This document shows positions 7,802 through 33,013 of a DNA stretch of 33,387 nt, piece by piece. The translations under genes and the position numbers were made by a program. The DNA lies in contig JAJVIN010000053.1 in assembly GCA_022071945.1 (NCBI GenBank), positions 1-33,387 on the forward strand. The letters run 5' to 3'. The stretch comes from Thermoanaerobaculia bacterium (GTDB taxonomy: Bacteria; Acidobacteriota; Thermoanaerobaculia; UBA5066). The notes under the pieces are model-generated. The model ran no database searches. It worked only from the letters and a program-made list of their open reading frames with translations, and was not told the origin of the DNA. Every line of letters begins with the position of its first letter. Position 1 is the stretch's first letter.

Positions 7802-7833
7802 AGAAACGAAACCGCCCGGGAGTAACCCGGGCG
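7802..7833 (-). terminator. Rho-independent terminator behind the tRNA-Pro fragment
   Basis: On the minus strand a perfect 9-bp stem CCGCCCGGG / CCCGGGCGG with loop TTACT is followed by TTTCGTTTCT. It lies 28 nt past the CCA end of the tRNA-Pro piece, in the right orientation to be that tRNA's native terminator. This suggests that sequence to the left is the original chromosomal flank. Confidence 0.75.
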
Positions 7834-7860
7834 GAAGTCGTTGATTTTCTTCGAGTTAAT

Positions 7861-7905
7861 TGGTCGGGACGCCGGGATTTGAACCCGGGACCCCTTGAAC
7901 CCCAT
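7861..7905 (-). tRNA. 3' half of tRNA-Pro(GGG): probable attachment site (displaced tRNA end)
   Basis: Read on the minus strand, the piece starts at position 32 of a proline tRNA: anticodon loop ATGGGGT (anticodon GGG), 3' anticodon stem TCAAG, variable loop GGGTC, T arm CCGGG-TTCAAAT-CCCGG, acceptor strand CGTCCCG, discriminator A and encoded CCA. The sequence on the 5' side (7906-7950) has no D arm and cannot pair with the anticodon stem or acceptor strand, so the gene is cut at the anticodon loop. Tyrosine recombinases often integrate at exactly this place in tRNA genes, leaving a displaced 3' half at one end of the element. A functional tRNA cannot be made from this copy. Confidence 0.85.
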
Positions 7906-7977
7906 CGGCGCCTCCTGTCTGCGGACAGCCGCAACTAGCCTTATATCATAGATTTACGCTGGCACGATTCTTTCCCT

Positions 7978-8018
7978 GGGTATCTAGGGACAGCTTGGGA
8001 CAACGAAATTAGATACCC
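7978..8018. promoter_or_regulatory. Inverted repeat upstream of the ArsR-rhodanese gene
   Basis: Perfect 9-bp arms GGGTATCTA (7978-7986) and TAGATACCC (8010-8018), separated by 23 nt, lie about 65 nt upstream of the ArsR-rhodanese start. The long spacer is unusual for a single ArsR dimer site. It could be a looped operator, two half-sites, or an RNA hairpin. No convincing -35/-10 pair is seen beside it. Confidence 0.4.
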
Positions 8019-8084
8019 CCAGACGCGAGCCTAGCCTTTCCGCATCGAGATACTCTACTATTCAATTGAGGCTGCGTAGACACG

Positions 8085-8759
8085 ATGCGCGGACGTGAGT
8101 TCAAGGACGCCCTCTTCGGACACTTCGCGAGGATCGGCAACGCGTTCGCGAGCGAGAAGCGGATCGAGATCATCGACCTGCTCGCGCAGGGTGAGCGCCC
8201 TGTCGAGGCCTTGGCGCGCGAAACGCGGATGTCGGTCGCGAACACCTCCCGCCACCTCCAAGTCCTGAAGGCCTCCCGGCTCGTCTCCTCACGCAAGGAC
8301 GGAGTCCACGTCTTCTACGGCCTCGCCGACCCGATGGTCCTTCGCGGCTACCGCACTCTCCAGGCCCTCTCGGAGGCGCGGCTCGCAGAGGTCGGGAAAC
8401 TGGTCGACGACTACTTCGGCAGCGTCGACGGGCTGGAGCCGGTCGAGAAGGAGGAGCTTCTCCGCCGCGCCCGCCAGCGGGACGTCGTGGTCATCGACGT
8501 CCGCCCGGCCGAGGAGTACGCCGCCGGTCATATCCCCGGGGCCGTCTCCATCCCCTTCGGCGAGCTCGAGCAGCGCCTCGACGAGATTCCGCCAGGGCGG
8601 AAGGTGGTCGCCTACTGCCGCGGGCCCTACTGCGTCCTCGCCGCCGAGTCGGTGAAGGCGCTCAGGGCCCACGGCGTTCGCGCCGTGCGTCTGAAAGACG
8701 GCTTCCCCGAATGGCGCGACGCCGGCCTCCCCGTCGAGACCCAGAACGACAACCCGTGA
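8085..8759 (+). CDS. ArsR-family regulator fused to a rhodanese domain
   Basis: The 224-aa protein has an ArsR-type winged helix-turn-helix at about residues 15-85 (recognition region SVANTSRHLQVLKASRLVSS) and a rhodanese domain at about 125-218 (DVRPAEEYAAGHIPGA) with the predicted catalytic Cys178 in CRGPYC; Cys183 ends that loop. The HTH part has no cysteines, so sensing probably works through sulfur chemistry at the rhodanese cysteine rather than by a classic ArsR metal site. This two-domain family is known. It would repress or derepress the DsrE-like gene that follows 19 nt later and perhaps the metal operon beyond. The ATG lacks a strong Shine-Dalgarno (TTGAGG lies 14 nt upstream). Confidence 0.92.
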   Translation: MRGREFKDALFGHFARIGNAFASEKRIEIIDLLAQGERPVEALARETRMSVANTSRHLQVLKASRLVSSRKDGVHVFYGLADPMVLRGYRTLQALSEARLAEVGKLVDDYFGSVDGLEPVEKEELLRRARQRDVVVIDVRPAEEYAAGHIPGAVSIPFGELEQRLDEIPPGRKVVAYCRGPYCVLAAESVKALRAHGVRAVRLKDGFPEWRDAGLPVETQNDNP

Positions 8760-9388: not shown

Positions 9389-9545
9389 GGGACTTCGCTT
9401 GCACAGTCTCTCTTGCAAAGAGCTGCGGATGGCTTTGGACGACGAGTCCAGAGACCATCCCGGCCAGCCTCAGAGCTCGAACCCGCAGGCACGGCCTGCA
9501 CCACCTCACGCATGCCGAAGCAACCCTGTGCTATCTTCCGCGCCG

Positions 9546-9848
9546 GTGTTGAGAAGGCTCCTCTTTCTGGTTTTCGCCGTCTTCCTGATCCAGGAGACGA
9601 ACCTCGGCTCCCTCCTCCTCGGGGCCGAGTGCGTGGAGACCTGCCCCGACGACACCAGCCCAGGCCATTGCCCGCCGACGTGCGCCACATGCAGCTGCGG
9701 CACCCATGTCAACCCGGTGGTGCCGAAAGTGGCCGCCCTCGCAAGTCCCGCCCCGCGCCCGTGCCGCCCCTCGTTCGAGGCGACCGTGCCTCCTGCCTCC
9801 CGGCACATCGGCGAGATCCTGCACGTCCCGAAACCGGCCCTCGCGTAG
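9546..9848 (+). CDS. Small exported Cys-rich protein preceding the efflux operon
   Basis: From GTG 9546 the protein (100 aa) starts with a hydrophobic segment MLRRLLFLVFAVFL, a likely signal peptide or membrane anchor. A cluster of six cysteines (Cys29, 33, 42, 46, 49, 51) and histidines (41, 54) follows, then a Pro/Ala-rich tail. I do not know its function. Binding metal in the periplasm is a reasonable inference from the Cys/His cluster and from its place just upstream of czcC. The open frame extends further upstream (to 9303), but that part is low-complexity and lacks a signal peptide, so the later start is preferred. No Shine-Dalgarno is seen, and a TATCTT box lies close upstream, so a leaderless transcript is possible. 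Confidence 0.65.
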   Translation: MLRRLLFLVFAVFLIQETNLGSLLLGAECVETCPDDTSPGHCPPTCATCSCGTHVNPVVPKVAALASPAPRPCRPSFEATVPPASRHIGEILHVPKPALA

Positions 9849-9870
9849 CAGCGGCTGAAGGGAGGCCCCA

Positions 9871-9906
9871 TCCGGAAGCGTCGCGCAAAGAGCGACGCTC
9901 GCCGGA
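9871..9906 (+). promoter_or_regulatory. Strong hairpin between the Cys-rich gene and czcC
   Basis: A perfect 8-bp stem AGCGTCGC (9877-9884) / GCGACGCT (9892-9899) with a 7-nt loop, extended by TCCGG / CCGGA (9871-9875 / 9902-9906). There is no T-run, so it is probably an mRNA processing, stability or attenuation element rather than an intrinsic terminator. The 230-nt gap 9849-10078 holds nothing else I can name. Confidence 0.5.
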
Positions 9907-10078
9907 GGCGGCATTCCCTCAGACCTCTTCGCTGACGGGTCGGCCATCCCGGCCGGCACGCCGCCACCGCGACGGGTCGACGCACGCGAATCCCGGGCGG
10001 ATTCACTCGAATCCCGACCTGGGCCCTCGGTCAAGACCGGGGAGCGCGCTTCTCTCCCGCCGCTTCCAGGAGGACGGA

Positions 10079-11332
10079 ATGGGAATTCGATCGCATGGCC
10101 GCTGGATGCTCGCGCTCGCAGCTCTGGTCGGCACTCTCGAAGCGCACGCGGACGACGGGCTCCGAATGGACGACTACGTCCGGCTCGTCCTGCAGTCACA
10201 CCCGGCCGCGGGGGCGGCGGCGGCGCTCGACGCGAGCGCCTCGGCAGAGTCGAAGGCGGCACGTCTCCTCCCTGACCCGACGTTCGAGGTGAGCCTCGGG
10301 AAGGGCCAGGCCTCGGACGGCTCCGGCTCCGCGAAGACGGAGAAGGGCTTCTCCGTCTCGCAGTCGATCCCGTGGCTTCCGGCCCGTTCAGCGTCGATCG
10401 AGGCCGCGGATCACGAGGCCAGGGCGCTGCGTGCCGAGGGACTCGCGACGCGGTGGGGCCTCGAGCTCGACGCGCGAGTCGCGTACGCCCGTCTCCTCTT
10501 CGCCCGGGCGCAGGTCGAGGTGAGCCGGGCCTCCACGGCGGACGCTGCGTCCCTCCTCGACCTGATGACCCGGCGTGAATCCCTGGGCGAGGCGCGCGAG
10601 GTGGACCGGATCAAGTCGCGCGTCGAGTGGCTCCGGCAGGATCGTGAGCTGAGCGCCGCCTACAGGGAAGAGCTCGCCGCGGAAGGCATCCTGCGGACGC
10701 TCGCGGGAGCGCCGCTCCCCGATCCGCTACGCCTCGAGGGAGAGCTGCCGCGGCACACCGACGCCATGCGCGCCCTCCTCGACGCGAAACCCGAGAACCT
10801 CGAGAGAAGCCCGGCGCTGATCCGTGCCCGCGCCGAGGCTTCCCGCGCCTCGTCGCTCCTCTCGAGCGCCCGCCGAGGTCGGATCCCGGACCTCGGCTTC
10901 TCCTTCTTCCGGCAGAACGAGCTCGATCGCGAGGCATGGGGCGGCGCGCTCGGCCTCTCCCTGCCGCTCTGGAACGCACGGCGTGGAGACGTCGCGCGCG
11001 CCGAGGCCGAGAGCCGCCTCCGGGCCGCCGATGCCGAGCGCGTGCGCCTTTCTCTCCTCGCCGACCTCGCGACACGCCGCCGCGACGTCGAAACCCTGGC
11101 CGTCCAGGTTGCCTCGCTCGAGGGAGACCTCCTTCCCTCCGCTGCCGAGAGCGTCCGTCTCGCCCGCCTCCTCTTCGAGGAAGGCGAGACCTCCCTCCTC
11201 GACCTCCTCGACGCACAGCGCACGGCCCGCGAGGCCCGCCGCGAGGAGATCCGCGCCCGCTTCGAGCTGATGACCGCGATCGCCGAGCTTCAGCGGCTCC
11301 TCGGTCCCAACGACGCCCCCTCCGGGAGATAG
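10079..11332 (+). CDS. czcC: CzcC-like outer-membrane efflux channel (TolC family)
   Basis: A 417-aa TolC-family protein with an N-terminal signal peptide (about residues 1-24, ending LEAHA). Two duplicated halves of long alpha-helices follow, with the familiar LLPDPTFEVSLG segment and a C-terminal LARLLFEEGETSLLDLLDAQ motif. It forms the outer-membrane exit duct for the RND pump encoded downstream. The open frame extends far upstream, but AGGAGG at 10068-10073 lies five bases before ATG 10079 and the signal peptide begins there. Only 3 nt separate it from czcB. Length matches CzcC/CusC relatives. Confidence 0.92.
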   Translation: MGIRSHGRWMLALAALVGTLEAHADDGLRMDDYVRLVLQSHPAAGAAAALDASASAESKAARLLPDPTFEVSLGKGQASDGSGSAKTEKGFSVSQSIPWLPARSASIEAADHEARALRAEGLATRWGLELDARVAYARLLFARAQVEVSRASTADAASLLDLMTRRESLGEAREVDRIKSRVEWLRQDRELSAAYREELAAEGILRTLAGAPLPDPLRLEGELPRHTDAMRALLDAKPENLERSPALIRARAEASRASSLLSSARRGRIPDLGFSFFRQNELDREAWGGALGLSLPLWNARRGDVARAEAESRLRAADAERVRLSLLADLATRRRDVETLAVQVASLEGDLLPSAAESVRLARLLFEEGETSLLDLLDAQRTAREARREEIRARFELMTAIAELQRLLGPNDAPSGR

Positions 11333-11335
11333 ACG

Positions 11336-12583
11336 ATGACGAAGACTCTCACTGCCTCATGGCTTCTTGCCGCGATCCTCGGCCTCACCCTCGCGCTCTC
11401 CGGGTGCGGGAAGACGAAGCCGGCTCCCGGGAAGGGGGAAGAGGCCGGGCACCCTGCGGAATCCGGAGAGGAGACCCACGCCGCCGAGATTCCTGACGAG
11501 GTCCGGATCACCGCCGCCGCCATCTCCGAGGCGGGAATCGCGACCTGGAAGGTCCAGGTCGTCGACCTCGCGCACCTCCTCTCCCTCAACGGGACGGTCG
11601 GCTACGACGAGAACCGCCTCCTCCAGGTCGCCGCGAACGTGAAGGGGCGCGTCGCCTCGATCCCGGTCGACCTCGGCTCGAGTGTCGCGAAGGGTCAGCC
11701 CCTCCTCGTCATCGAGAGCGTCGACCTCGGCCGGGCGCGCGAGGAGTTCTTGCGGGAGCTCTCCGCATTCAGCGTCTCGGCGCGCGCTTTCGAGCGGGCC
11801 CGGAAGCTCGTGGAGGAGAAGGCGATCAGCGCCGGGGAGTTCCAGTCCCGCGAGGGCGATTACCTGGCGCGGAAGGCAGGCCTCGCCTCCGCCGAAAGGA
11901 CCCTCCACCTCTACGGCGACGACGACGAGGCGATCCGCCGCCTCCGCGCTGCCGCCGCTTCGGACGCGCACACCGCCGAGGACGGCGCCGCCCTCACGCT
12001 TCGCGCGCCGTTCGCCGGGCGCGTCGTCGAGCGCAAGGTCACCCCCGGCGCGCTCTTCGAGGCGCTTCAGCCGCTCCTGACGCTCGCCGACCTCTCCACG
12101 GTCTGGGTCTTCCTCGACGTCTACGAGAAGGACCTCTCGCAGCTCCACGAGGGGCTCGCGGTCACGCTTCGGACCGAGGCGTACCCGCAGGAGACCTTCC
12201 CTGGGAAGATCGACTTCCTCGGCGGAGCCATCGACGCCCAGACGCGGAGCACCCGCGTCCGTGCGACCGTCATGAACCGCTCCGGAAGGCTGCGGCCCGG
12301 CCTCTTCGTCAAGGCCCTGGTCGACGTCCCCCGGCCGAAGAGCGAGTCCCATCCCGTCGTCGCCGTCCCGCAGGGGGCGATCCAGTCGCTCGAGGGGCGG
12401 CCGACGGTCTTCGTCCAGAAGGAGCCCGGAGTCTTCGTCCGGCACGCCGTCGAGACGGGCCACACGTTCGAGGGTTTCACGGAGGTCCTCTCCGGCGTGA
12501 AGTCGGGAGACGTCGTGGTGACGGAAGGGAGCTTCGTCCTGAAGTCGGAGTTCGCGAAGGCCTCGCTCGCCGAGGAGCACTGA
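11336..12583 (+). CDS. czcB: CzcB-like periplasmic adaptor (membrane fusion) lipoprotein
   Basis: A 415-aa RND membrane-fusion protein. The N-terminus has a lipoprotein signal with lipobox LSGC (Cys24), followed by a charged linker with a few His and Asp/Glu residues. Then come a barrel-sandwich/lipoyl hybrid (around 95-120 and 220-245), a helical hairpin (around 140-205) and the C-terminal beta-barrel domain (VWVFLDVYEKDLSQL, then GAIDAQTRSTRVRATVMN). It bridges the CzcA pump and the CzcC channel across the periplasm. It sits between czcC (3 nt upstream) and czcA (1 nt downstream, TGAGATG), so translation is probably coupled. Confidence 0.94.
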   Translation: MTKTLTASWLLAAILGLTLALSGCGKTKPAPGKGEEAGHPAESGEETHAAEIPDEVRITAAAISEAGIATWKVQVVDLAHLLSLNGTVGYDENRLLQVAANVKGRVASIPVDLGSSVAKGQPLLVIESVDLGRAREEFLRELSAFSVSARAFERARKLVEEKAISAGEFQSREGDYLARKAGLASAERTLHLYGDDDEAIRRLRAAAASDAHTAEDGAALTLRAPFAGRVVERKVTPGALFEALQPLLTLADLSTVWVFLDVYEKDLSQLHEGLAVTLRTEAYPQETFPGKIDFLGGAIDAQTRSTRVRATVMNRSGRLRPGLFVKALVDVPRPKSESHPVVAVPQGAIQSLEGRPTVFVQKEPGVFVRHAVETGHTFEGFTEVLSGVKSGDVVVTEGSFVLKSEFAKASLAEEH

Positions 12584-12584
12584 G

Positions 12585-15500
12585 ATGCTCCGGAGGATCG
12601 TCGACCTCAGCCTCGAGAACCGCGCCCTCGTCCTCCTCGCCTCGCTCCTCCTCGTCGTCGGCGGAGGGTACGCCCTCACACAGCTCCCGATCGACGCCGT
12701 CCCAGACATCACCAACGTCCAGGTCCAGGTCCTGACGAAGGCCCCGGCCCTCGGCCCGGTCGAGATGGAGCAGTTCGTCACCTACCCGGTCGAGGCGGCC
12801 ATGAACGGCCTCCCGCGGCTGAAGGAGATCCGCTCGGTCTCACGCTATGGCCTCTCCGCCGTGACGATCGTCTTCGAGGACGGGGTGAACATCTTCTTCG
12901 CCCGACAGCTCGTCGCCGAACGCCTCGTACAGGCGCGGGAAGCGATTCCCGAAGGGCTCGGAAACCCGGAGATGGGACCGGTGACGACGGGCCTCGGCGA
13001 CGTCTTCCAGTTCACGGTCGAGGGCGAGGGGGTCTCGGCCATGGAGCGCCGGTCGATCCTCGACTGGATGATCGCGCCTCGCCTGCGTGCCGTCCCCGGC
13101 GTCACCGAGGTGAACACCTGGGGCGGCCTCCCGAAGCAGTACCAGGTCCTCGTCGACCCGGCCCGGCTCCGGGCGCACGGCCTTTCGCTCCGCGAGGTCT
13201 TCGAGGCGGCGGAGCGCGGGAACGCGAACGCCGGAGGCGGGTACATCGAGCACAACCGCGAGCAGTACATCGTGCGGGGCGAGGGGCTCGTCGGCTCGAT
13301 CTCCGACATCGAGAAGATCGTCCTGAAGGCCGACGAGCACGGGACCCCCGTGACCGTCGGGAGCATCGCGCAGGTGCGCGAGGGATCGATGATGCGGATC
13401 GGCGTCGCGACGAAGGACGGCCACGGCGAGACGGTCATCGGGCTCGTCCAGATGCTGGCGGGCGAGAACGCCCTGGATGTCGCCACCCGGGCCCGCATGG
13501 CGGTCGAGGAGCTCCAGCCGACGCTGCCGAAGGGCGTCAAGATCGTCCCCTACTACGACCGGGCGTCGTTCGTGAGGCGCGTCATCCGAACCGTGGAAAC
13601 GAACCTCCTCGAGGGGAGCATCCTCGTCGTCGCCGTTCTCTTTCTCTTCCTCGGAAACGTTCGAGCAGGGCTCATCGTGGCCTCGGCGATCCCGCTCTCG
13701 ATGCTCCTCGCCTTCACGGGAATGGTCGAGACGCGCATCTCCGCGAACCTCATGAGCCTCGGCGCCATCGACTTCGGGCTGATCGTCGACGGCGCGGTCG
13801 TCCTCGTCGAGAACGTCGTCCGCCGCCTCTCGGAGCCGGAGGGGCGGGAAAAGACGGTCCGACAGCTGACGGCGGAGGCCGCCCACGAGGTCGTCCGGCC
13901 GATCACATTCGGCATCGGCATCATCGCCCTCGTCTACCTTCCGATCCTCAGCCTCGAGGGTGTCGAGGGGAAGATGTTCAAGCCGATGGCCTGGACGGTC
14001 GTCTTCGCCCTGGCCGGCTCGCTCCTCCTCACGCTCACGCTCACGCCGGTCCTCGCGTCGCTCTTCCTGAAGAAGACGGGGCACGACCACGAGCCCCGCT
14101 TCGTCGGCTGGCTCCGCGTCCGCTACCTCGCGCTCCTCGACATCAGCCTGAAGCAGCGGGTCCCCGTCATTCTCTCGGCCGTCGTCGCGGTCGTCGCCGG
14201 CATCCTCGTCGGCTCGCGCCTCGGCGGCGAGTTCCTTCCGAGGCTGGACGAGGGGGACCTCTCCATCTCCGCCATCCGCCCCCCGTCCGTCGGCATCTCC
14301 GAGGTCGCGGCGTCGACGGGGCGTATCGAGCGCGTCCTCAAGCGCTTTCCGGAGGTCGTCACGGTCGTCAGCCGCTCGGGGAGCCCCGAGCTCGCGACGG
14401 ATGTCATGGGGATCGAGCAAGGCGACGTCTTCGTCATCCTCAAGCCGAAGAAGGAGTGGACCTCGGCGCGGACGAAGGGCGAGCTCGTCGAGAAGATGGA
14501 GCACGCTCTCGGCGAGTCGGTGCCCGGCGTCGGCTTCTCCTTCCTCCAGCCGATCGAGATGCGCTTCAACGAGCTCATCGCCGGAGTGAGGTCCGACATC
14601 GGCATCAAGCTCTTCGGCGACGACCTCGAGGTCCTGCGCGAGAAGGGCGAGGAGATCGCCAGGGTCGTCGCCACCGTCCCCGGCTCCGCGGACGTCAAGA
14701 CCGAGCAGACGGCCGGCCTCCCGGTCCTCCGCGTCCGGGTCGACCGCGACCGTTGCGCCCGCTACGGCATCTCGATCTCCGACGTCCTCGACACCGTCGA
14801 GGCGGCGCGCGCCGGCAAGATCGTCGGGACCGTCTTCGAGGGTCAGCGCCGCTTCACTCTCGCGGTGCGGTTCGAGGACGCGACGGCCCGAACGATCGAC
14901 TCCCTCGCGAACGTCCCCGTCGCCGCGCCGGGGGGCGCCCTCGTCCCGCTCGGCCAGCTCGCCGAGATCACCCTCGACACCGGACCGGCGCAGATCTCCC
15001 GAGAGGCGGTGCGCCGGCGCATCGTCGTCGAGACGAACGTGCGCGGCCGCGACGTCGCCTCGTTCGTGAAGGAGGCGAAGGAGCGGATCGCTCGCGAGGT
15101 CACGCTCCCCGGCGGCTACTACATCACCTGGGGCGGGCAATTCGAGAACCTCGAGCGGGCCTCCCGCCGCCTCGCCGTCGTCGTGCCGCTCGCCCTCGCC
15201 CTCATCTTCGCGATGCTCTACTTCACGTTCGGCTCCTGGAAGCCGGCCGCCCTCATCTACCTCAACGTCCCGCTCGCGGCCACGGGCGGCGTCTTCGCTC
15301 TCTCGCTCCGGGGCCTCCCGTTCTCGATCGCCGCGGCCGTCGGCTTCATCGCCCTCTTCGGCGTCGCCGTCCTGAACGGCGTCGTCCTGATGACCCAGAT
15401 CCGCGACCTGGAGGCGCGTTCCGACGCCGGCATCCTCGACGTCCTCCGCCGCTCCTGCGGCCTGAGGCTGCGGCCCGTGCTCATGACGGCCTTCGTCGCG

Positions 15501-15689
15501 TCGCTGGGGTTCGTCCCGATGGCGCTCGCGACGGGCTCCGGCGCGGAGGTCCAGCGGCCGCTCGCCACCGTCGTCATCGGCGGCCTCGTCACGTCGACGC
15601 TCCTGACGCTCTTCATCCTCCCCACCGTCTACTCCCTCCTCGGCCGTCCCGGCCGGGGCCCCGACCCGGAGGTGGCGCATGAGTCCTGA
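12585..15689 (+). CDS. czcA: CzcA-type heavy-metal RND efflux pump
   Basis: A 1034-aa inner-membrane RND transporter of full family length with 12 predicted membrane segments and two large periplasmic loops. The transmembrane-4 signature reads DFGLIVDGAVVLVEN, giving the charged residues Asp396, Asp402 and Glu409. That DFGx3DGAx3VEN pattern is the one described for divalent-cation (Zn/Co/Cd, sometimes Ni) HME pumps and differs from the monovalent Cu/Ag (CusA) type. It exports metal using proton motive force together with the CzcB and CzcC proteins. Its 3' end overlaps the PII-like gene by 11 nt. Long antisense open frames here are shadows of its strong codon bias. Confidence 0.96.
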   Translation: MLRRIVDLSLENRALVLLASLLLVVGGGYALTQLPIDAVPDITNVQVQVLTKAPALGPVEMEQFVTYPVEAAMNGLPRLKEIRSVSRYGLSAVTIVFEDGVNIFFARQLVAERLVQAREAIPEGLGNPEMGPVTTGLGDVFQFTVEGEGVSAMERRSILDWMIAPRLRAVPGVTEVNTWGGLPKQYQVLVDPARLRAHGLSLREVFEAAERGNANAGGGYIEHNREQYIVRGEGLVGSISDIEKIVLKADEHGTPVTVGSIAQVREGSMMRIGVATKDGHGETVIGLVQMLAGENALDVATRARMAVEELQPTLPKGVKIVPYYDRASFVRRVIRTVETNLLEGSILVVAVLFLFLGNVRAGLIVASAIPLSMLLAFTGMVETRISANLMSLGAIDFGLIVDGAVVLVENVVRRLSEPEGREKTVRQLTAEAAHEVVRPITFGIGIIALVYLPILSLEGVEGKMFKPMAWTVVFALAGSLLLTLTLTPVLASLFLKKTGHDHEPRFVGWLRVRYLALLDISLKQRVPVILSAVVAVVAGILVGSRLGGEFLPRLDEGDLSISAIRPPSVGISEVAASTGRIERVLKRFPEVVTVVSRSGSPELATDVMGIEQGDVFVILKPKKEWTSARTKGELVEKMEHALGESVPGVGFSFLQPIEMRFNELIAGVRSDIGIKLFGDDLEVLREKGEEIARVVATVPGSADVKTEQTAGLPVLRVRVDRDRCARYGISISDVLDTVEAARAGKIVGTVFEGQRRFTLAVRFEDATARTIDSLANVPVAAPGGALVPLGQLAEITLDTGPAQISREAVRRRIVVETNVRGRDVASFVKEAKERIAREVTLPGGYYITWGGQFENLERASRRLAVVVPLALALIFAMLYFTFGSWKPAALIYLNVPLAATGGVFALSLRGLPFSIAAAVGFIALFGVAVLNGVVLMTQIRDLEARSDAGILDVLRRSCGLRLRPVLMTAFVASLGFVPMALATGSGAEVQRPLATVVIGGLVTSTLLTLFILPTVYSLLGRPGRGPDPEVAHES

Positions 15690-16068
15690 TTCGATGCACG
15701 TTGTCGTGGCGTTCGTCCAGCCGTTCCTCCTCGAGGAGGTCGTGGACGCTCTTCGGCTCGTCCGGAACTTCCCGGGGATGAGCGTGAGCGAGGTTCGCGG
15801 CTTCGGCCGGCGCTGCGCCCACGCGCCGCTCCGTGGGGAGGCGACCGAGGTGGAGCCTTTCGAGGAGCGTGCTCGGATCGAGATCTGCTGCCGGGAGTCC
15901 GAGCTGAAGCCGATCCTCGACACGCTCTGGAGATCAGCACACACTGGCAACGCCGGCGACGGGAAGATCTTCGTCCTCCCGCTCCAGCGCGCCATCCACA
16001 TCCGGACCCGTGAGGAGGGCTCCGAGGCCCTCGTCTGCGGATACCCCGCCGAAGACCCCCATGGCTGA
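15679..16068 (+). CDS. PII-like signalling protein of the metal efflux operon
   Basis: A 129-aa protein with the PII ferredoxin-like fold: VVAFVQPFLLEEVVDALR at the start, a T-loop-like segment with RCAHAPLRG, and the C-terminal signature GNAGDGKIFVLPLQRAI. The canonical uridylylation Tyr of GlnB is not evident, so it is not a standard nitrogen regulator. PII-like proteins recur beside CzcA-type pumps and may bind a nucleotide or metal to tune transport. That role is inferred from context. It overlaps czcA by 11 nt and the ATPase by 8 nt, so the genes are translated as a unit. Confidence 0.85.
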   Translation: MSPDSMHVVVAFVQPFLLEEVVDALRLVRNFPGMSVSEVRGFGRRCAHAPLRGEATEVEPFEERARIEICCRESELKPILDTLWRSAHTGNAGDGKIFVLPLQRAIHIRTREEGSEALVCGYPAEDPHG

Positions 16069-17980
16069 TGTCTCCCCTCCTGCGCCGGTTTCCTACTGGC
16101 GGTCGCCCGTCGCCCGCCGCGTCCTCGCTGGCGGTGTCCTCCTCGGCGCGGGGCTGCTCGCGGAGCGGCTCGGCGCCGGCCATGTGTGGACCATTCCGCT
16201 CTATGTCGCCTCGATGCTCCTCTCGGGGCTGGACTGGCTCCGTCACGGTTGGAAGGAGCTGGTCCATTGCCGAGAAATCGGGATCGAGCCGCTCATGGCC
16301 GCTGCCGCTGTCGGCGCCGCGGCCCTCGGGCTCTGGGACGAGGCTGCCGCGCTCGTCTTCCTCTACGGCCTGGCGGAGTCCGTCGAGCATCTCACCTACG
16401 ATCGGGCCAAGCGCGCGATCGAGCGCCTCCTCGACCTCGTCCCGGACGAGGCCACCCTCCTCCGGGACGGAAGCGAGGTCGTCGTTCCGGCCTCGCTTCT
16501 CGAGCGTGGGGACCGGATCCGGGTCCGCCCGGGTGAGACGATCGCGACAGACGGCGTCATCGAGGAGGGCGAGTCGACGGTCGACGAGTCGAGCCTCACG
16601 GGAGAGTCGATGCCGATCGCCAAGGCACCCGGAGCGCGTGTCTTCGCCGGCACGCTGAACCAGACGGGGAGCATCGTCTTCCGGGCGACGGCGACCACGA
16701 GCGAGAACTCCGTGAGCCGCCTCGTGAGGCTGGTCGAGACGGCGCAGAAGTCCAAGGGCCGAAGCCAGCAGCTCGTCGAGCGGTTCACGAACGTCTACTC
16801 GCCTCTCGTCCTCGGGGCGGCCGTCCTGCTCCTCCTCGTCCCGGTCGTGACCGGCGGCGACTTCTCCCGATGGGGGCGCTGGGCCGTCGTCCTCCTCGTC
16901 GCAGCTGCTCCCTGCGCCCTCGCGATGTCGACGCCCGTGGCGTTCGCGGCGGGCATCTCGGCGGCCGGCCGGCACGGCATCCTGATCAAGGGCGGCCGCT
17001 ACCTCGAGACGCTCGGGCGGATCCGCACCGTCGTCTTCGACAAGACGGGGACCCTCACCCGCGGTCGGCCGGAGCTCGTCGTCCTCGAGCTGGCGGATGG
17101 CGTCACCGAAGTGGAGCTCCTGTCGAAGGCTGCCTCCCTCGAGGTCCGATCGGAGCATCCGCTGGCCGCGGCCGTCGTCCGGGCGGCGGAGCAGAAGGGC
17201 GTGGCCACCTCCGGTGTCCTGAGCGGCTTTCGCGCACTCCCCGGGTCGGGAGTGGAGGGCATCGTCGACGGTGAGCGCATTCAGATCCTCCAGCCGAACG
17301 CCGGTGGTTCACCCTTCGGTGCCCTCTCGCGCCGCCTTGAGGAGCTGGCCGGTAAAGGCGTCACGCCGGCTGTCGTACTAGCTGGAGATCGGCTCATCGG
17401 CATCCTGGGATTCCGAGACGAGCCACGACCCGAGGCCGCCGAGACGGTCCGTCTCATTCGGTCGGCGGGCGTCAGCAGGCTCGTCGTCCTCTCGGGTGAC
17501 CGGCCGCTCGTGGCCCAGGGCGTCGCGCGATCCGTTGGAATCGAGGACGCTCGCGGAGGGCTGAGCCCCGCCGACAAGGTCCAGGCTGTCCGGTCGCTCG
17601 CCTCGGAGTCCGGACCGCTCGCTATGGTGGGCGACGGGATCAACGATGCTCCCGCGCTGGCCACGGCCGACGTCGGCATCGCCATGGGCGCTCTCGGGAG
17701 CGACGCCTCGATCGAGGCCGCCGACGTGGCCCTGATGGCGGACAGCCTCGAGCACCTCGACGAGGCCTTTCTCATCGGCAGGCGCGTCCGCTCGATCGTC
17801 CGGCAGAACGTCGTCTTCTCGATCGTCGTGCTCGCGGTCCTGATTCCGGTGGCGCTCACCGGGGCGATCACCATCACGATGACGGTCGTCGCGCACGAAG
17901 TCGCGGAGCTGCTCGCGGTCGCGAATGGCCTTCGCGCCCTGCGCGGCGGACGCGACCACGCAACAACGGCCGCGACATGA
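16061..17980 (+). CDS. P1B-type metal-transporting ATPase with an APC motif
   Basis: A 639-aa heavy-metal P-type ATPase without an N-terminal HMA domain. Visible motifs are TGES (180-183), phosphorylation site DKTGTLT (327-333), SEHPLAAAVV and GDGINDAPA. The membrane metal-site motif is Ala283-Pro284-Cys285 instead of the usual CPC, SPC or CPH. The last membrane helix has HEVAELLAVANGLR, reminiscent of the HEGxTLLVxxN motif of P1B-4 pumps. The substrate therefore cannot be read off directly. A divalent metal such as Co, Zn or Cd is plausible from the operon. I chose ATG 16061 over an in-frame start at 16010 because the upstream part is read inside the PII gene and is not conserved-looking. 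The gene ends in a strong terminator. Confidence 0.93.
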   Translation: MADVSPPAPVSYWRSPVARRVLAGGVLLGAGLLAERLGAGHVWTIPLYVASMLLSGLDWLRHGWKELVHCREIGIEPLMAAAAVGAAALGLWDEAAALVFLYGLAESVEHLTYDRAKRAIERLLDLVPDEATLLRDGSEVVVPASLLERGDRIRVRPGETIATDGVIEEGESTVDESSLTGESMPIAKAPGARVFAGTLNQTGSIVFRATATTSENSVSRLVRLVETAQKSKGRSQQLVERFTNVYSPLVLGAAVLLLLVPVVTGGDFSRWGRWAVVLLVAAAPCALAMSTPVAFAAGISAAGRHGILIKGGRYLETLGRIRTVVFDKTGTLTRGRPELVVLELADGVTEVELLSKAASLEVRSEHPLAAAVVRAAEQKGVATSGVLSGFRALPGSGVEGIVDGERIQILQPNAGGSPFGALSRRLEELAGKGVTPAVVLAGDRLIGILGFRDEPRPEAAETVRLIRSAGVSRLVVLSGDRPLVAQGVARSVGIEDARGGLSPADKVQAVRSLASESGPLAMVGDGINDAPALATADVGIAMGALGSDASIEAADVALMADSLEHLDEAFLIGRRVRSIVRQNVVFSIVVLAVLIPVALTGAITITMTVVAHEVAELLAVANGLRALRGGRDHATTAAT

Positions 17981-28516: not shown

Positions 28517-29377
28517 TTAGCGACGCCCCGGCCAGTGTCGGCGGCCAAGTCCGAATTCGTCGGGGTCCAGTTCACCATCGTCAGCAGGTTCATAACCGTG
28601 GCGGTCGTCCAGGAATGAGGTTGCGAGGAGGAGCGAGAGCGTCGCGTCGTAGCGGGGCAGCGCGCGCGTCCACTCCTGGAGCGTCGCTCCCGCGATGAGA
28701 CCTTCCGGGTAGAGCCACGCAGTCGCCGGGACGACTACCCAGGCATCGGGCGGATTCGTGCCGCGGAAGCTATCGGCTGCGACCGTCTCGGCCGAGAGGT
28801 CATCGACACGAACCGCCCGGTGAAACTCTGCGGACCGACGGAACCACCGAACGCGACCGCCCTCGCTCCAAACGAGAGCGAGGGCGTGCGCGGACGCCTC
28901 GACCAGGCGGTAGGCACTCGCGGTGAGGGAGGTCCCGCACCGTGCAGCCAAGTCCTCGACGACCGGAAACGACGGGGCCGTCGCGGAGAGTGGCTGTAGG
29001 ACGTCGTCGGGCATCGTGAGCGCAGCGGCGAAGAGGTTCGCCTCGGCCTCGCGATCGCCCGCGCGCCCCTCGAAACGCTCCAGGTCACGCGGGCGACACG
29101 GGCTGGACTCGCGATCGTGGCCGGGCAAGACGTAGTGGCCGAGCTCGTGGGCGAGCGTGAAGAGCCGCCGCTGGACGTTGCGCTGAGCGCGATTCAGGAG
29201 GATGACACCTCGCGCCACGCCTGCGGCGCGGACGAGGGCGCCCTCGAAAGCGTCAGCGTCGATCTCGCGGATCGTCAGGCCCAACTTGGAGGCGAGCTCC
29301 GGGAGACGGCGTGCGCAGTCCGTGCCGTGCTCGGCAATGAATGCGCGAGCAAAGGTGACTGCGTCAGCCCTTGTCAT
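28517..29377 (-). CDS. ImmA/IrrE-family metallopeptidase
   Basis: A 286-aa protein with the zinc-protease motif HELGH (TLAHELGHYVLPGH) and a downstream metal ligand region REAEANLFAAALTMP, both hallmarks of the ImmA/IrrE (DUF955) family. The C-terminal 130 residues look like an extra sensory or substrate-binding domain. Family members cleave a repressor or anti-activator when the cell is stressed (ImmA on ICEBs1, IrrE in Deinococcus). ATG 29377 was chosen because the protein then begins MTRADAVTFARAFI, the usual helix before the fold; the frame upstream lies inside the preceding gene. It overlaps that gene by 14 nt. No Xre-type repressor partner is present. The 86-nt gap to the integrase (28431-28516) holds no clear terminator. 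Confidence 0.9.
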   Translation of the reverse strand: MTRADAVTFARAFIAEHGTDCARRLPELASKLGLTIREIDADAFEGALVRAAGVARGVILLNRAQRNVQRRLFTLAHELGHYVLPGHDRESSPCRPRDLERFEGRAGDREAEANLFAAALTMPDDVLQPLSATAPSFPVVEDLAARCGTSLTASAYRLVEASAHALALVWSEGGRVRWFRRSAEFHRAVRVDDLSAETVAADSFRGTNPPDAWVVVPATAWLYPEGLIAGATLQEWTRALPRYDATLSLLLATSFLDDRHGYEPADDGELDPDEFGLGRRHWPGRR

Positions 29378-29822
29378 TCTTCTCGGGCTCCTGGCGCAAG
29401 GTGTCGGCAGCCTCGTCGAGAGCAGCGCGGTCGCGCTCCGTGAGCTCCGCATCGCCCTTCCGGTAGGCTTCGACCACGCGGAGGCCGCCAACTGGTGGGA
29501 CGACGGCCTGGCCCAGCGCCTTGACGAATCGCGCTGCCTTGGCGAGCGCCGCGGCGGGGTCGCGTGGGAGCCTCGGGCTGTCGTCCATCGCTTCCGCGAA
29601 AGCGGTCAGTGCCTTCGGCGCAGCGTGCCCTGCGCGTCGGTGACCGGCTGCAACCTCATTGGCCATCGTGTGGAGCCGGCGCCGAATGTCGGCGAGGTCA
29701 CAGGCGCCGTCCTCGTGGAGGCGGTCGACCTCAGGCTCCGAGAGGGACTCGACGTCCGGGAGCAACGCGTCGAGCACGGCCTCAAGCCTCTTCTCTTCCT
29801 CGCGCTGACGCTTCTTCGACAT
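29364..29822 (-). CDS. Charged helical protein between the sigma factor and the peptidase
   Basis: A 152-aa protein, mostly alpha-helical and highly charged (MSKKRQREEEKRLEAVLDAL, then DIRRRLHTMANEVAAGH), with a Lys/Glu-rich C-terminus. No known family recognised. It has a good Shine-Dalgarno (AAGGAAGG) before ATG 29822. It starts 14 nt after the sigma-factor gene and overlaps the peptidase gene by 14 nt. Its place between a sigma factor and an ImmA-type protease makes it a candidate anti-sigma or protease substrate, but nothing in the sequence proves this. Confidence 0.8.
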   Translation of the reverse strand: MSKKRQREEEKRLEAVLDALLPDVESLSEPEVDRLHEDGACDLADIRRRLHTMANEVAAGHRRAGHAAPKALTAFAEAMDDSPRLPRDPAAALAKAARFVKALGQAVVPPVGGLRVVEAYRKGDAELTERDRAALDEAADTLRQEPEKNDKG

Positions 29823-29836
29823 AGGTGGCCTTCCTT

Positions 29837-30448
29837 CTACGTTCGCGCCCGGGCTGCCGCCTGCGGCTGACGCGCTCGAGCGAGGATCCGGCCGAGGCGC
29901 TTCTTGATGTTCACGACGTCCGCTGGGGTGACTCCGAGCTCGACGGCGGCCTCGGCGTTCTGGTACGGGCCGCCTCCATCAACCTGGAGGTCAAGGTAGA
30001 GGACCACCTCGACGTCGTCCTCAGCCTCTGCGATGAACCTCGCACGGCTGTAAAGCTGGGTGACGAGGATCTGGTCAACGAGGCGCTCGCTACTCCCCGG
30101 AGATCCCGCCGGAGCGGGTCCGAGCGATCGGGCATCTTCGCAATCGGTGCCGGAGACCACGCCGGGCGCGGTGTGGGTGTACGCCCCCTTGCGGAGGCAG
30201 TCGAGGAAGTAGTTCTTCAGGACGACTTTGAGGTACCCGACGACCGCCGGGACGGTCGGCGAGCCCTTGTCCGCGCTCCACTTCACGGTCGTCGCGGGGT
30301 CCCAGAGCCGTCGGAGCGTCTCGTAGACCAAGTCCTCTGGACCAATGCCGAGTCCTGCGACCACGTCGACAGACACGAGGGTCTTCGCGAAGGCGCCGAG
30401 GCGTTTCAAGACGCTCCGCCACTCCTCTGAGGAAAGGACGACGTCCAC
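29837..30448 (-). CDS. Sigma-70-like (ECF-type) RNA polymerase sigma factor
   Basis: From GTG 30448 the protein has 203 aa. A region-2-like segment (GPEDLVYETLRRLWD, then VPAVVGYLKVVLKNYFLDCL) resembles the EDLVQETFLRLW...WLYRIARNLLRDRLR pattern of ECF sigma factors. A region-4-like helix-turn-helix follows (YQNAEAAVELGVTPADVVNI, then KKRLGRILARAR). GGGAGG lies upstream of the GTG. The frame stays open to 30667, but the extra 73 residues are low-complexity and cross the promoter region of the divergent operon. Region 4 is shorter than usual, so the match is good but not perfect. It heads a three-gene minus-strand operon. Confidence 0.78.
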   Translation of the reverse strand: MDVVLSSEEWRSVLKRLGAFAKTLVSVDVVAGLGIGPEDLVYETLRRLWDPATTVKWSADKGSPTVPAVVGYLKVVLKNYFLDCLRKGAYTHTAPGVVSGTDCEDARSLGPAPAGSPGSSERLVDQILVTQLYSRARFIAEAEDDVEVVLYLDLQVDGGGPYQNAEAAVELGVTPADVVNIKKRLGRILARARQPQAAARART

Positions 30449-30511
30449 GTACTGCTGGCCTCCCAGGGTCCCCTCCTTGAGCCCGACCTCTCGAGCCTCC
30501 TGTAGAGGATA

Positions 30512-30562
30512 CGAGGGAGCCAGGCTTGTTTTGCCACCGCCACTCCCTCGGGGACGGCAAAA
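30512..30562. promoter_or_regulatory. Interleaved inverted repeats in the divergent promoter region
   Basis: Two perfect inverted repeats overlap between the sigma-factor gene and the ubiquitin-like operon. One is CGAGGGAG (30512-30519) / CTCCCTCG (30543-30550). The other is TTTTGCC (30529-30535) / GGCAAAA (30556-30562). They are interleaved, so both cannot fold at once as RNA, which suggests protein-binding sites or a switch. The whole intergenic space is 30449-30623. No standard sigma-70 promoter was recognised, which would fit use of an alternative sigma factor. Confidence 0.5.
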
Positions 30563-30623
30563 GCGGCCGCCCTGACTCGTACAAGGTGGGAGCGCCCCTG
30601 ACGGGGAGCCGAAGGAGACGCAT

Positions 30624-30890
30624 ATGGATGCCCTTGCAGCGAAGACCGACCACGGCCCCCACCCCACCGAGATCCCGATCCAGATCGACCACCGGCCCTA
30701 CAAGGCGCCGAAGTCCGGCATGACCGGCGCGGAGCTGAAGGCGCTCGCAGGAATCACGGGCGACTACGACCTGTGGTACGAGACGCCCGGCCCGACCGAC
30801 GACGTCAAGGTCCGAGACGACCAGCCCTTCGCCCTCCACCCCGGGGCGCACTTCTATTCGATGCCCCGGACGATCAACCCGGGGAGCTGA
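30624..30890 (+). CDS. Ubiquitin-like protein (multiubiquitin-type domain, single copy)
   Basis: An 88-aa protein. After a flexible N-terminus of about 16 residues there is one beta-grasp domain (IPIQIDHRPYKAPKSGMTGA, GDYDLWYE, DDVKVRDDQPFALHPG, HFYSMPR). This matches the pattern of the bacterial multi-ubiquitin domain, in which the V.LHPGxHFYS.P motif is typical. It ends in NPGS, so the probable conjugation glycine is Gly87, followed by one residue. Many relatives carry tandem domains, whereas this has one. GAAGGAG (30611-30617) lies seven bases upstream. It is the first gene of a four-gene operon and should be the modifier attached by the enzymes that follow. Confidence 0.85.
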   Translation: MDALAAKTDHGPHPTEIPIQIDHRPYKAPKSGMTGAELKALAGITGDYDLWYETPGPTDDVKVRDDQPFALHPGAHFYSMPRTINPGS

Positions 30891-30894
30891 CGCC

Positions 30895-31275
30895 GTGGCG
30901 CTCCCGGCCGCCGACGCGGCGTTCCTGACGGCGAAGGGGTACACGCACGAGCTACTCGCGGGCGCCGGCCCCGAACTGCTCCTCGTCCTCCGCGCCGTGC
31001 CCCTGGCGCCGGGGAGGTTCGACCAGCCGGCGACCGACGTCCTCGTAAAGATCCCGCCCGGCTACCCGGCGACGCCGCTCGACATGTTCTGGGTCTGCCC
31101 GCCCCTCCGGTACCCGACGGGCGCCACGCCGCCCGCGGCGGACAACTACGAGACGCACGAGGGGCGCAGCTGGCAGCGCTTCTCCCGGCACCTGGCCGGC
31201 GGGGCATGGCGGCCAGGGATCGACTCTCTTCGGACGTTCCTCCCCGTCGTCCTCGCGGAGCTCGTCGGACCGTGA
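30895..31275 (+). CDS. E2-fold (UBC-like) protein, prokaryotic E2 family E type
   Basis: A 126-aa protein with features of the bacterial Prok-E2_E family: VLVKIPPGYPATPLDMFWVC corresponding to the YPxxPP strand of UBC folds, and the C-terminal signature GRSWQRFSRH...WRPGIDSLRTFL. It would accept the ubiquitin-like protein from the E1 and hand it on. The only cysteine is Cys68, directly after MFWV, which is earlier than the usual catalytic cysteine, so the chemistry may be non-canonical. GTG 30895 follows the modifier gene by 4 nt, and its stop overlaps the next start (GTGA). Confidence 0.85.
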   Translation: MALPAADAAFLTAKGYTHELLAGAGPELLLVLRAVPLAPGRFDQPATDVLVKIPPGYPATPLDMFWVCPPLRYPTGATPPAADNYETHEGRSWQRFSRHLAGGAWRPGIDSLRTFLPVVLAELVGP

Positions 31276-32654
31276 GCGCGCCTGGCGTGACCCTCACCCT
31301 CCGATCCGAGCACCTCGCGTCGCTCGGGGCCCTCCTCTTCGATCGCACCGACGTCGAGTCGGCAGCGTACGTGCTCTGCGGCAGGAGCGCTGGGGAGGAC
31401 GGTAGCGAGAGGCTGCTCTCCCGGGCCGTGGTTCCTGTTCGTCCCCAGCACTACCGGCGCCGGGAGCGCGACCGGCTCTCCGTCGCTGACGAGTCGTTCG
31501 TCCCGGTCGTGAAGCGCGTCCGCACCGAGGGCGGCGCGCTCCTCCTGGCTCACAGCCACCCGGACGGGCCGCTCGCCTTCTCTGAGCAGGACGACCGCGA
31601 GGAGGCCCGCCTCTTCGCCGCCGTGCAGCGACGCGCACCGGGGCCGCACGGCTCCCTCGTCTTCACGGCACCGGACGAGCTCGTTGGGCGCGTCTGGCGG
31701 CCCGATGGCCGAACGGGGCCCATGGCGCGGGTCACCGTCGTCGGGGAGCGGCTCCGGGTCCTCGTCGGAGGCGCCGAGGACGTCTCGCCGATCTTCGACC
31801 GTCAGGTTCGCGCCTTCGGGCCGGACGTCCAGCGGGTGCTCGCTGACCTCACCGTGGGCGTCGTCGGGCTCGGGGGAACGGGCTCCGCCGTCTTCGAGCA
31901 GCTGCTGCGACTCGGGGTCGGGCGCCTCCTCCTCATCGACGACGACCGCTTCGACGGGACGAACGTGAACCGCGTCCACGGCTCGCGCCTCACCGACGTC
32001 GGCCGGCCGAAGGTAGAGATCGCGAGCCGGACCGCTGCCGACAGCGGCCTGCCCACGCGCGTCACGGCGATCGACGGCAGCGTCTTGGACGCCTCCGTGG
32101 CACGCCGGCTCCGGGGTTGCGACGTAGTCTTCGGCTGCACGGACCGCCAGCTCCCCCGGCTCGTGCTGAGCCGGCTCGCCACGCGGTATCTCATCCCGGT
32201 GATCGACGTCGGGGCGCTCGTCGACGCCCACGACGGGACGATCCGGTCCGTGGCCGGGCGCGTCACGACGCTCGTGCCGGGAGCGTCCTGCCTGCTGTGC
32301 CGCGGTCAGGTCACCGCCGACGGCCTCCGCGCCGAGGCCCTGAGTGCCTCGGACCGAGAGCGCCTCGCCGCCGAGGGCTACGTCCGCGGACTGGACGCCC
32401 CCTCACCCGCCGTCGTGCCCTTCACGACCGTCGTGGCCTCCCTCGGCGTGGCCGAACTCCTCCAGCGCCTCACGGGCTTCATGGGCCCACGAGCCAGTAC
32501 CGAGACGCTCCTGCGCTTCGACCTGCCGAAGCTCGCCACGAACGCGGTCCCCCCGAGCGCCTCGTGCGACTGTGCCGATGCCTCGACGTGGGGGCGGGGC
32601 GACGAGGAGCCGTTCCTCGGGCTCACGTGGCGCCAGGAGGCGCCGGCGCGGTGA
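31272..32654 (+). CDS. JAB/JAMM protease - E1 (ThiF-like) activating enzyme fusion
   Basis: A 460-aa two-domain enzyme. Residues 5-150 are a JAB/JAMM metalloprotease with Glu29, His94-Ser-His96-Pro, Ser104 and Asp107 (AHSHPDGPLAFSEQD), all metal-site residues present. Residues 175-430 are a ThiF/E1 adenylation domain with GLGGTGS (199-205), DDDRFDGTNVNR (223-234), DR at 291-292 and a Cys pair CLLC (340-343) that could bind zinc with CDC (432-434). No cysteine lies in the region where E1 enzymes carry the thioester cysteine; the remaining ones are Cys36, Cys283 and Cys289. The enzyme should both activate the modifier and process or remove it. GTG 31272 overlaps the E2 stop. Confidence 0.92.
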   Translation: MSAPGVTLTLRSEHLASLGALLFDRTDVESAAYVLCGRSAGEDGSERLLSRAVVPVRPQHYRRRERDRLSVADESFVPVVKRVRTEGGALLLAHSHPDGPLAFSEQDDREEARLFAAVQRRAPGPHGSLVFTAPDELVGRVWRPDGRTGPMARVTVVGERLRVLVGGAEDVSPIFDRQVRAFGPDVQRVLADLTVGVVGLGGTGSAVFEQLLRLGVGRLLLIDDDRFDGTNVNRVHGSRLTDVGRPKVEIASRTAADSGLPTRVTAIDGSVLDASVARRLRGCDVVFGCTDRQLPRLVLSRLATRYLIPVIDVGALVDAHDGTIRSVAGRVTTLVPGASCLLCRGQVTADGLRAEALSASDRERLAAEGYVRGLDAPSPAVVPFTTVVASLGVAELLQRLTGFMGPRASTETLLRFDLPKLATNAVPPSASCDCADASTWGRGDEEPFLGLTWRQEAPAR

Positions 32655-33013
32655 TCGAGCGGCTCCTCGGAGTCGTCCGGCGCGTCCTTCCGGCGGCCGC
32701 CGCCCGGCTCCTTCGGCGGAGGCACTACGGCGCGGGGACGCGGTGCCCCAGGACCGCCGCACCGGAGGCGGAACGCCTCGCACGGCGGGGTCGCCTCGTC
32801 ATCCTCCTGAAGGGCACGCACCCGACGTGGCTTCTCGCGCCATGCCCGTGCCGGTGCGGCGAGATCCTCCGCGTGAACCTCATGCCTTCGGGAGCGCCGG
32901 CGTGGCAGCTGTCCGAGGACGCCAGCGGTAGGATCACGGTCTGGCCGTCGTTGATCGTCACCGCCTGCGGAAGCCACTTCTGGATCACCGCCGGAAGCGT
33001 CCGTTGGGTGTAG
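32651..33013 (+). CDS. DUF6527-type Cys/His protein of bacterial ubiquitin-like operons
   Basis: A 120-aa protein. After a basic helix (residues 1-25) it shows the pattern I associate with the DUF6527 family: CPCRCGEIL (Cys65, 67, 69), a WQL/ITVWPS strand pair and CGSHFWITAGSVRW (Cys106, His109). The Cys/His set probably holds a zinc ion. DUF6527 proteins recur as the last component of E1/E2/Ubl operons in bacteria; their exact role (protease or target selection) I cannot settle from sequence. GTG 32651 overlaps the E1 stop by 4 nt, so it is translated with it. Confidence 0.8.
   Translation: MIERLLGVVRRVLPAAAARLLRRRHYGAGTRCPRTAAPEAERLARRGRLVILLKGTHPTWLLAPCPCRCGEILRVNLMPSGAPAWQLSEDASGRITVWPSLIVTACGSHFWITAGSVRWV

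What the first reader, a model, noticed from the sequence alone, without database searches (positions are those of the whole stretch)
30624..33013. Compact ubiquitin-like conjugation operon: Ubl, E2-fold, JAB-E1 fusion, DUF6527
Four genes overlap or nearly touch (gaps of 4, -4 and -4 nt) and encode a modifier, an E2-fold protein, an activating enzyme fused to a deconjugating protease, and a Cys/His accessory protein. Such operons were predicted by comparative genomics, and related systems (Bil and Bub types) have been linked to phage defence. This one combines a single Ubl domain with a JAB-E1 fusion and lies beside two integrases, which suggests mobile defence cargo.
Basis: partly seen in the sequence, partly recalled or inferred. 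Interest (0 to 1): 0.9.

Follow-up and report, generated by a model that had tools for sequence, protein, structure and literature searches.

The report
Bub-type bacterial ubiquitin-like conjugation operon
Four tightly packed genes encode a complete bacterial ubiquitin-like tagging system of a known but little-studied kind (Bub, operon type 6e); its E2 enzyme carries a serine where most E2s carry a cysteine, and in relatives a sigma-factor switch that we found in no list of immune controllers sits beside this and other bacterial immune operons.

Summary
At 30624-33013 lie four touching genes: Ubl, E2-fold protein, JAB-ThiF fusion and DUF6527. Each matches its family, and the E1 and E2 match solved Citrobacter BubCD and BubB. 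The set is the 'fifth operon type' (6e) of Iyer et al. 2006, now called Bub: a new member of a known kind, in a clade apart from the Citrobacter member.

An invariant Ser (Ser97) aligns with Cys in archaeal members, and the E1 has no conserved Cys at the usual thioester site. This points to a serine-oxyester relay (inferred). Phage defence by Bub operons has not been shown (PMC13373217).

New lead: in relatives a divergent module of ECF-like sigma factor, middle protein and CapP-like peptidase borders Bub, CBASS, Bil and 6A-MBL operons, with a shared promoter motif facing both ways. The papers we could read do not list it among immune controllers. The window has the CapP-like gene and the same layout, but its sigma-like and middle genes are not recognisable by sequence, so its membership is only suggested.

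The parts
30624..30890 (+). Ubl (BubA-like), one Multi_ubiq domain; C-terminus INPG-S, likely trimmed after Gly87
   Evidence: PF14452 1.3e-8; C-termini of relatives
30895..31275 (+). E2-fold protein (BubB-like), Ser97 in WQRFSRH at the active-site column
   Evidence: PF14462 1.8e-32; solved BubB; alignment
31272..32654 (+). JAB protease fused to ThiF-type E1 (BubCD-like); JAMM Glu29/His94/His96/Ser104/Asp107, ThiF Asp223
32651..33013 (+). DUF6527 protein with C-x3-C-x36-C-x2-H
   Evidence: PF20137 6.5e-17
28517..29377 (-). CapP-like M78 (ImmA/IrrE) peptidase, HELGH motif
   Evidence: PF06114 3.7e-16; PADLOC capP 6.6e-49; 9.5e-29 to profile of relatives
29364..29822 (-). middle gene of the divergent cluster, 152 aa, family unrecognised
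   Evidence: position only; not recovered by profile
29837..30448 (-). possible diverged sigma-like protein, 203 aa, family not proven
   Evidence: position and size; 5.2 bits, rank 2 among itself and 500 shuffles
30510..30535 (-). candidate promoter element GGCAAAA-N13-CTCGTA towards the divergent cluster
30556..30581 (+). candidate promoter element GGCAAAA-N13-CTCGTA towards the Ubl operon

Best explanation
The four genes are a Bub (operon type 6e) ubiquitin-like conjugation system. Likely cycle: the JAB domain trims the Ubl after Gly87 and later removes it from targets; the ThiF domain adenylates the Gly C-terminus; the Ubl passes, without an E1 thioester, to Ser97 of the E2 as an oxyester; the E2 hands it to target proteins, with the Cys/His DUF6527 protein helping in target choice, transfer or removal. 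Expression is probably controlled by the divergent cluster, in which a CapP-like peptidase would be the stress (ssDNA) sensor. Family membership, gene order and active-site conservation are shown here; the processing site, serine chemistry, DUF6527 role, targets and regulation are inferred.
For: Family matches for all four proteins. E1 and E2 match solved Citrobacter BubCD and BubB. The anatomy equals the fifth operon type of Iyer 2006. Same order in relatives of several phyla and on plasmids. JAMM and ThiF residues are invariant. Processing: a Gly is kept and followed by nothing, a variable tail, or a fused E2 that must be cut off, as in L015, L035, L038 (Citrobacter), L040 and L096. Serine: Ser97 is at least 90% invariant, present in solved BubB, and replaced by Cys in archaeal E2s of L041 and L099, which match Prok-E2_E and weakly UEV. 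E1: the only invariant Cys residues are 283 and 289, and 283 is absent from Citrobacter BubCD. Regulation: capP match, and relatives with CapH+CapP-type pairs in the same place.
Against: Iyer et al. read the missing Cys as an inactive, RWD-like, Ubl-binding E2; alignment alone cannot prove that Ser97 is catalytic, and no residue-level structural superposition was possible. The DUF6527 fold matches nothing solved, so its role is a guess. No phage-defence result exists for Bub. The full text of the Bub mechanism paper (Ye et al. 2026) was not available.
Confidence: 0.7

Rival explanations
1. The E2-fold protein is catalytically dead, as proposed in 2006: it only binds the Ubl, and the E1 transfers the Ubl straight from the adenylate to targets (like E2-less archaeal SAMP systems), or the system activates the Ubl for another chemistry such as sulfur transfer.
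For: No catalytic Cys; the original authors' reading.
Against: Ser and the neighbouring His are nearly invariant and Ser swaps with Cys in archaea, which is unexpected for a mere binding protein; E2 and E1 co-occur throughout; no rhodanese or sulfur gene in the operon.
Confidence: 0.2
2. The operon is not anti-phage but a general stress response (for example DNA damage) that tags host proteins.
For: Bub protection against phage has not been shown, and the authors of PMC13373217 name this possibility; the CapP-type control responds to DNA damage in known cases.
Against: Patchy and plasmid- or prophage-borne distribution; the same controllers border CBASS and Bil operons.
Confidence: 0.35
3. The divergent cluster has nothing to do with a sigma factor: the CapP-like peptidase cleaves the middle protein or another repressor and the third gene is unrelated.
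For: The window's sigma-like and middle genes are not recovered by the relatives' profiles; the relatives' motif is absent.
Against: Same order, size and orientation as in relatives; CapP-like gene recovered at 9.5e-29; an inverted bipartite motif in the intergenic region.
Confidence: 0.4

Closest known systems
Bub operons; Citrobacter BubA/BubB/BubCD (PDB 9EA4, 9EA5, 9EA8, 9EAE, 9EAV)
   Same: Same E1 architecture over its full length, same E2 family with the same QRWSRH motif, multi-ubiquitin-type modifier, DUF6527 gene next
   Different: The Citrobacter plasmid relative L038 fuses a multi-Ubl protein to the E2 and has CapK/CapS-like genes upstream; the window has one free Ubl ending INPG-S, about 28% E1 identity, and lies in another clade
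Operon type 6e of Iyer, Burroughs and Aravind 2006 (PMC1779556)
   Same: All described parts
   Different: Nothing defining; the paper read the E2 as inactive and gave the Cys/His signature as ending H-x2-C, here C-x2-H
Bil (BilABCD)
   Same: A Ubl, E2, JAB and E1 set
   Different: Ubl and E2 have no PADLOC match at all; JAB and E1 are fused here and DUF6527 is present
CBASS Cap2/Cap3 and 6A-MBL
   Same: E1, E2 and JAB parts; E1 has E1-E2 matches of up to 3.5e-16
   Different: No cyclase, effector or MBL gene; separate E2; own Ubl
CapH+CapP controller
   Same: CapP-like peptidase in the divergent cluster
   Different: No HTH (CapH-like) gene beside it in the window; two unrecognised genes instead

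Membership tests
Bub / operon type 6e | Multi_ubiq-type Ubl, one to three repeats | tested here: met
   PF14452 1.3e-8, one repeat
Bub / operon type 6e | Prok-E2_E protein without the classical Cys | tested here: met
   PF14462 1.8e-32; Ser97 at the site, the only Cys is the unconserved Cys68
Bub / operon type 6e | JAB fused to the N-terminus of a ThiF-type E1 | tested here: met
Bub / operon type 6e | Cys/His (zinc-finger-like) protein, DUF6527 | tested here: met
   PF20137 6.5e-17; C-x3-C-x36-C-x2-H
Bub / operon type 6e | Ubl conjugation to proteins | not testable with these tools
   needs biochemistry
Bil | BilA-D profile matches | tested here: not met
   Ubl and E2 match no PADLOC model; no Bil model among the 25 of 32 E1 matches shown
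CBASS | CD-NTase and effector in the operon | tested here: not met
   operon ORFs carry neither; the downstream side is cut by the contig end
Classical E1-E2 thioester cascade | catalytic Cys in E2 and in E1 | tested here: not met
   E2; E1: no conserved Cys at the usual site by alignment
CapH+CapP controller | HTH repressor gene next to capP | tested here: not met
   capP itself met; neighbours have no HTH or capH match
sigma-middle-CapP module of relatives | recognisable ECF-like sigma gene | tested here: inconclusive
   5.2 bits, rank 2 among itself and 500 shuffles; other members left out in turn score 110-150 bits
sigma-middle-CapP module of relatives | recognisable middle protein | tested here: inconclusive
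   5.1 bits, within shuffles
sigma-middle-CapP module of relatives | CapP-like gene in the same order and orientation | tested here: met
   9.5e-29

The most novel reading that the evidence does not exclude
A controller class that is not among those listed in PMC13373217 (CapW, CapH+CapP, CapK+CapS): a divergent module of ECF-like sigma factor, middle protein and CapP-like peptidase that drives itself and the neighbouring immune operon (Bub, CBASS, Bil, 6A-MBL) from a shared bipartite promoter; CapP cleavage of the middle protein would free the sigma factor after DNA damage. The window carries a strongly diverged form of it.
Probability: 0.5. Interest if true: 0.78.

Novelty: new member of a known kind. 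Interest (0 to 1): 0.56.

Why it matters
Bub operons are among the closest bacterial counterparts of eukaryotic ubiquitination, and their purpose is not established. This member adds a clade with a single free Ubl, and the natural Ser/Cys swap between bacterial and archaeal E2s makes oxyester against thioester transfer testable by one mutation. If the sigma-CapP module of the relatives is real, it is one switch shared by several bacterial immune systems, working by activation through a dedicated sigma factor instead of release from a repressor, and its promoter motif could be used to find further immune operons.

Tried and rejected
Classical E2 with catalytic Cys: rejected on the alignment. 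Cys68 as the nucleophile: not conserved. Profile comparison of the E2 alignment with a single CBASS E2 gave nothing (uninformative). PDB search with the DUF6527 profile: no match; its AlphaFold2 model gave no Foldseek match below E 0.5 and only SH2-like rows at Z about 4, taken as no evidence of fold. AlphaFold2 of the window's sigma-like protein: mean pLDDT 47.6 from 3 sequences, not used. The window's sigma-like and middle genes as proven module members: rejected after leave-one-out tests. The relatives' motif TGTCCG-N18-GCATAGG is absent from the window (5 mismatches each way, no better than shuffles). The missing upstream half of the closest relative's operon (G397/L003) in other contigs: nothing found. 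Phage genome records: no E1 match. DUF6527 in the paper library: no paper. A sigma factor as known immune controller: not found in the papers searched; Lau et al. 2022 and an ECF classification paper were not held.

Full report
1. Observation. The four genes are present at the stated coordinates with gaps of +4, -4 and -4 nt. Pfam assigns Multi_ubiq, Prok-E2_E, ThiF plus Prok-JAB, and DUF6527, each over its cut-off. The window is the whole of contig C54 (33,387 bases) of a 6.17-Mb genome, so the operon ends about 370 bases from a contig end and its downstream side is unknown. The closest relative, 78% identical in E1 (L003; G397, same family, another genus), is cut by a contig end near the start of its E1 gene.

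2. What it is. The E1 matches solved Citrobacter BubCD over nearly its full length (2.3e-44), and the E2 matches solved Citrobacter BubB (2.9e-9; profile 8.8e-29). [quoted passage not shown] Relatives with the same order occur in several phyla and on plasmids. In a tree of 30 E1s, the window and L003 fall in a supported set of 10 (100/98) apart from the Citrobacter member.

3. Modifier processing. The Ubl ends INPG-S. In relatives a Gly (NPG, TEG, TAG, NNG, VFG, QAG) is followed by nothing, by a short tail, or by a fused E2. Exposing the Gly is needed before adenylation, and the JAB domain, with all JAMM residues (Glu29, His94, His96, Ser104, Asp107), is the obvious protease. This is inference; no cleavage was measured.

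4. Chemistry. In the E2 family a Ser in W-Q-R-W-S-R-H is at least 90% invariant (also in most of the sequences) and is present in solved BubB. In two haloarchaeal members (L041, L099) the same column is Cys (KYCIHH, KYCIHT); these match Prok-E2_E (1.5e-5, over the cut-off, and 0.005) and weakly UEV, an E2 variant. The motif lies shortly before a conserved Trp, as does the catalytic Cys of classical E2s (established knowledge). In the E1 only Cys283 and Cys289 are invariant, and Cys283 is missing in Citrobacter BubCD; Cys289 sits in the C-T-D motif shared with MoeB and ThiF, which is not the thioester site (established knowledge). An E1 adenylate passing the Ubl directly to an E2 serine is therefore the best reading, at about 0.65. 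Ye et al. 2026, which treats a Bub mechanism, could not be read. From memory, unverified, it reports chemistry that is not the usual thioester relay; if so, this point confirms it and is not news.

5. DUF6527. Cys65, Pro66, Pro83, Trp85, Pro99, Ser100, His109 and Trp119 are invariant in 14 sequences. The AlphaFold2 model is confident (mean pLDDT 85.5) but no solved structure matches well. A zinc site, and a part in target choice or deconjugation, are guesses.

6. Controllers in relatives. Genes divergent to or upstream of Bub operons fall into kinds: HTH plus M78 peptidase, as in CapH+CapP (L005, L009-L011, L034-L036, L045-L047); GNAT-like plus HTH plus M78 (L004, L007); genes like CapK+CapS (L038); and a sigma-like gene, a middle gene and a CapP-like peptidase (L014, L039, L043, L096; remnant in L097), with a 450-478 aa protein in place of the peptidase in L012 and L040. 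The sigma-like proteins match TIGR02937 sigma70-ECF below its cut-off (2.2e-8 for L087, 2e-7 for L014, 1.4e-7 for L082, 4.1e-7 for L012; none for L084, L091 or L040) and Sigma70_r2; some are annotated as sigma-70 family factors.

7. The same module elsewhere. It lies divergent to CBASS (L081: cyclase 2.6e-201, E2, SAVED-HNH effector; L095), to an E2 plus TIR-effector set (L085), to Bil (L091: BilC 2.7e-12, BilD 6.8e-19), to a set like 6A-MBL (L087) and to other E1-bearing sets (L092, L093). Not every module has a recognised immune neighbour (L080, L082-L084, L094). In Acidobacteriota, 7 of 7 strong sigma matches have a CapP-like gene within their 3.6-kb loci, against 1 of 23 weak (ordinary ECF) matches; two of the 7, the window and G107, were in the profile. 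In the E1 tree the module appears in five places that supported branches keep apart, so it seems to be swapped between operons.

8. Promoter motif in relatives. The intergenic regions hold TGTCCG-N17/18-GCATAGG in both directions: summed mismatches of the two best sites are 0 to 5 in L014, L039, L040, L043, L080-L084 and L086, against shuffle means of about 9. In six plasmids, 880 kb in all, 11 sites have at most one mismatch, and 10 of them lie in the module's intergenic region. The motif was first read off some of these same regions, so this is a description of specificity, not a blind test. L087, L093-L096 and L092 fit poorly or not at all.

9. The window's own cluster. The CapP-like gene 28517-29377 is well supported (6.6e-49 to PADLOC capP; 9.5e-29 to the relatives' profile). 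The two genes before it have the order, sizes and orientation of the module, but profiles of 16 sigma and 15 middle proteins do not recover them. With filters off, the sigma-like protein scores 5.2 bits, second among itself and 500 shuffles, and the middle protein 5.1 bits, within shuffles; other members left out in turn score 110-150 and 72-89 bits. The intergenic region has GGCAAAA-N13-CTCGTA in both orientations; 1 of 100 shuffles had as good a pair. These are the only two exact sites in the genome, but so few are expected by chance for 13 fixed bases, and with two mismatches allowed the pattern is no commoner than its reversed control. Control of the window's operon by a diverged sigma module is thus a hypothesis.

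10. Defence or stress. The immune company and the patchy, mobile distribution favour defence, but protection against phage by Bub has not been shown (PMC13373217).

Verdict. A real, apparently intact new member of a known operon kind, with one testable point of chemistry and one regulatory lead that comes from its relatives.

Noticed in passing
L081 6983-8768, L095 5419-7278, L085 about 7001-8696, L091 6748-8587, L087 6989-8753: Sigma-like, middle and CapP-like genes divergent to CBASS, TIR-effector, Bil and 6A-MBL-like operons.
   Followed up: partly
L012 2832-4184, L040 1682-3118: A 450-478 aa protein that by eye starts like a proteasome-type (Ntn) hydrolase stands where the CapP-like peptidase would be; no significant family match.
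   Followed up: no
L099 3468-4957: Haloarchaeal plasmid with two Ubl-E2 pairs before one E1; one E2 has Cys at the active-site column, the other does not.
   Followed up: no
L096 2969-7721: Bub operon with the divergent module in an IMG/VR contig, next to what looks like a Mu-like phage gene.
   Followed up: partly
L093 6250-6549, L034 4097-4324, L082 4844-5359: Small DUF3892 or DUF2188 proteins, or unnamed ones of that size, recur next to these immune operons and modules.
   Followed up: no
L092 7924-9575: E1-like protein without the JAB N-terminus, followed by a DUF6527 domain, beside a sigma-CapP module.
   Followed up: no
L039 3676-4947: IS256 element between the E2 and E1 genes of a Bub operon.
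   Followed up: no
window 9413-17980: Outer-membrane efflux protein, HlyD-type protein, AcrB-type pump and P-type ATPase: an efflux cluster.
   Followed up: no
window 2871-6929: 1352-aa protein joining a Ser/Thr kinase, an AAA ATPase and an SBP_bac_5 domain.
   Followed up: no
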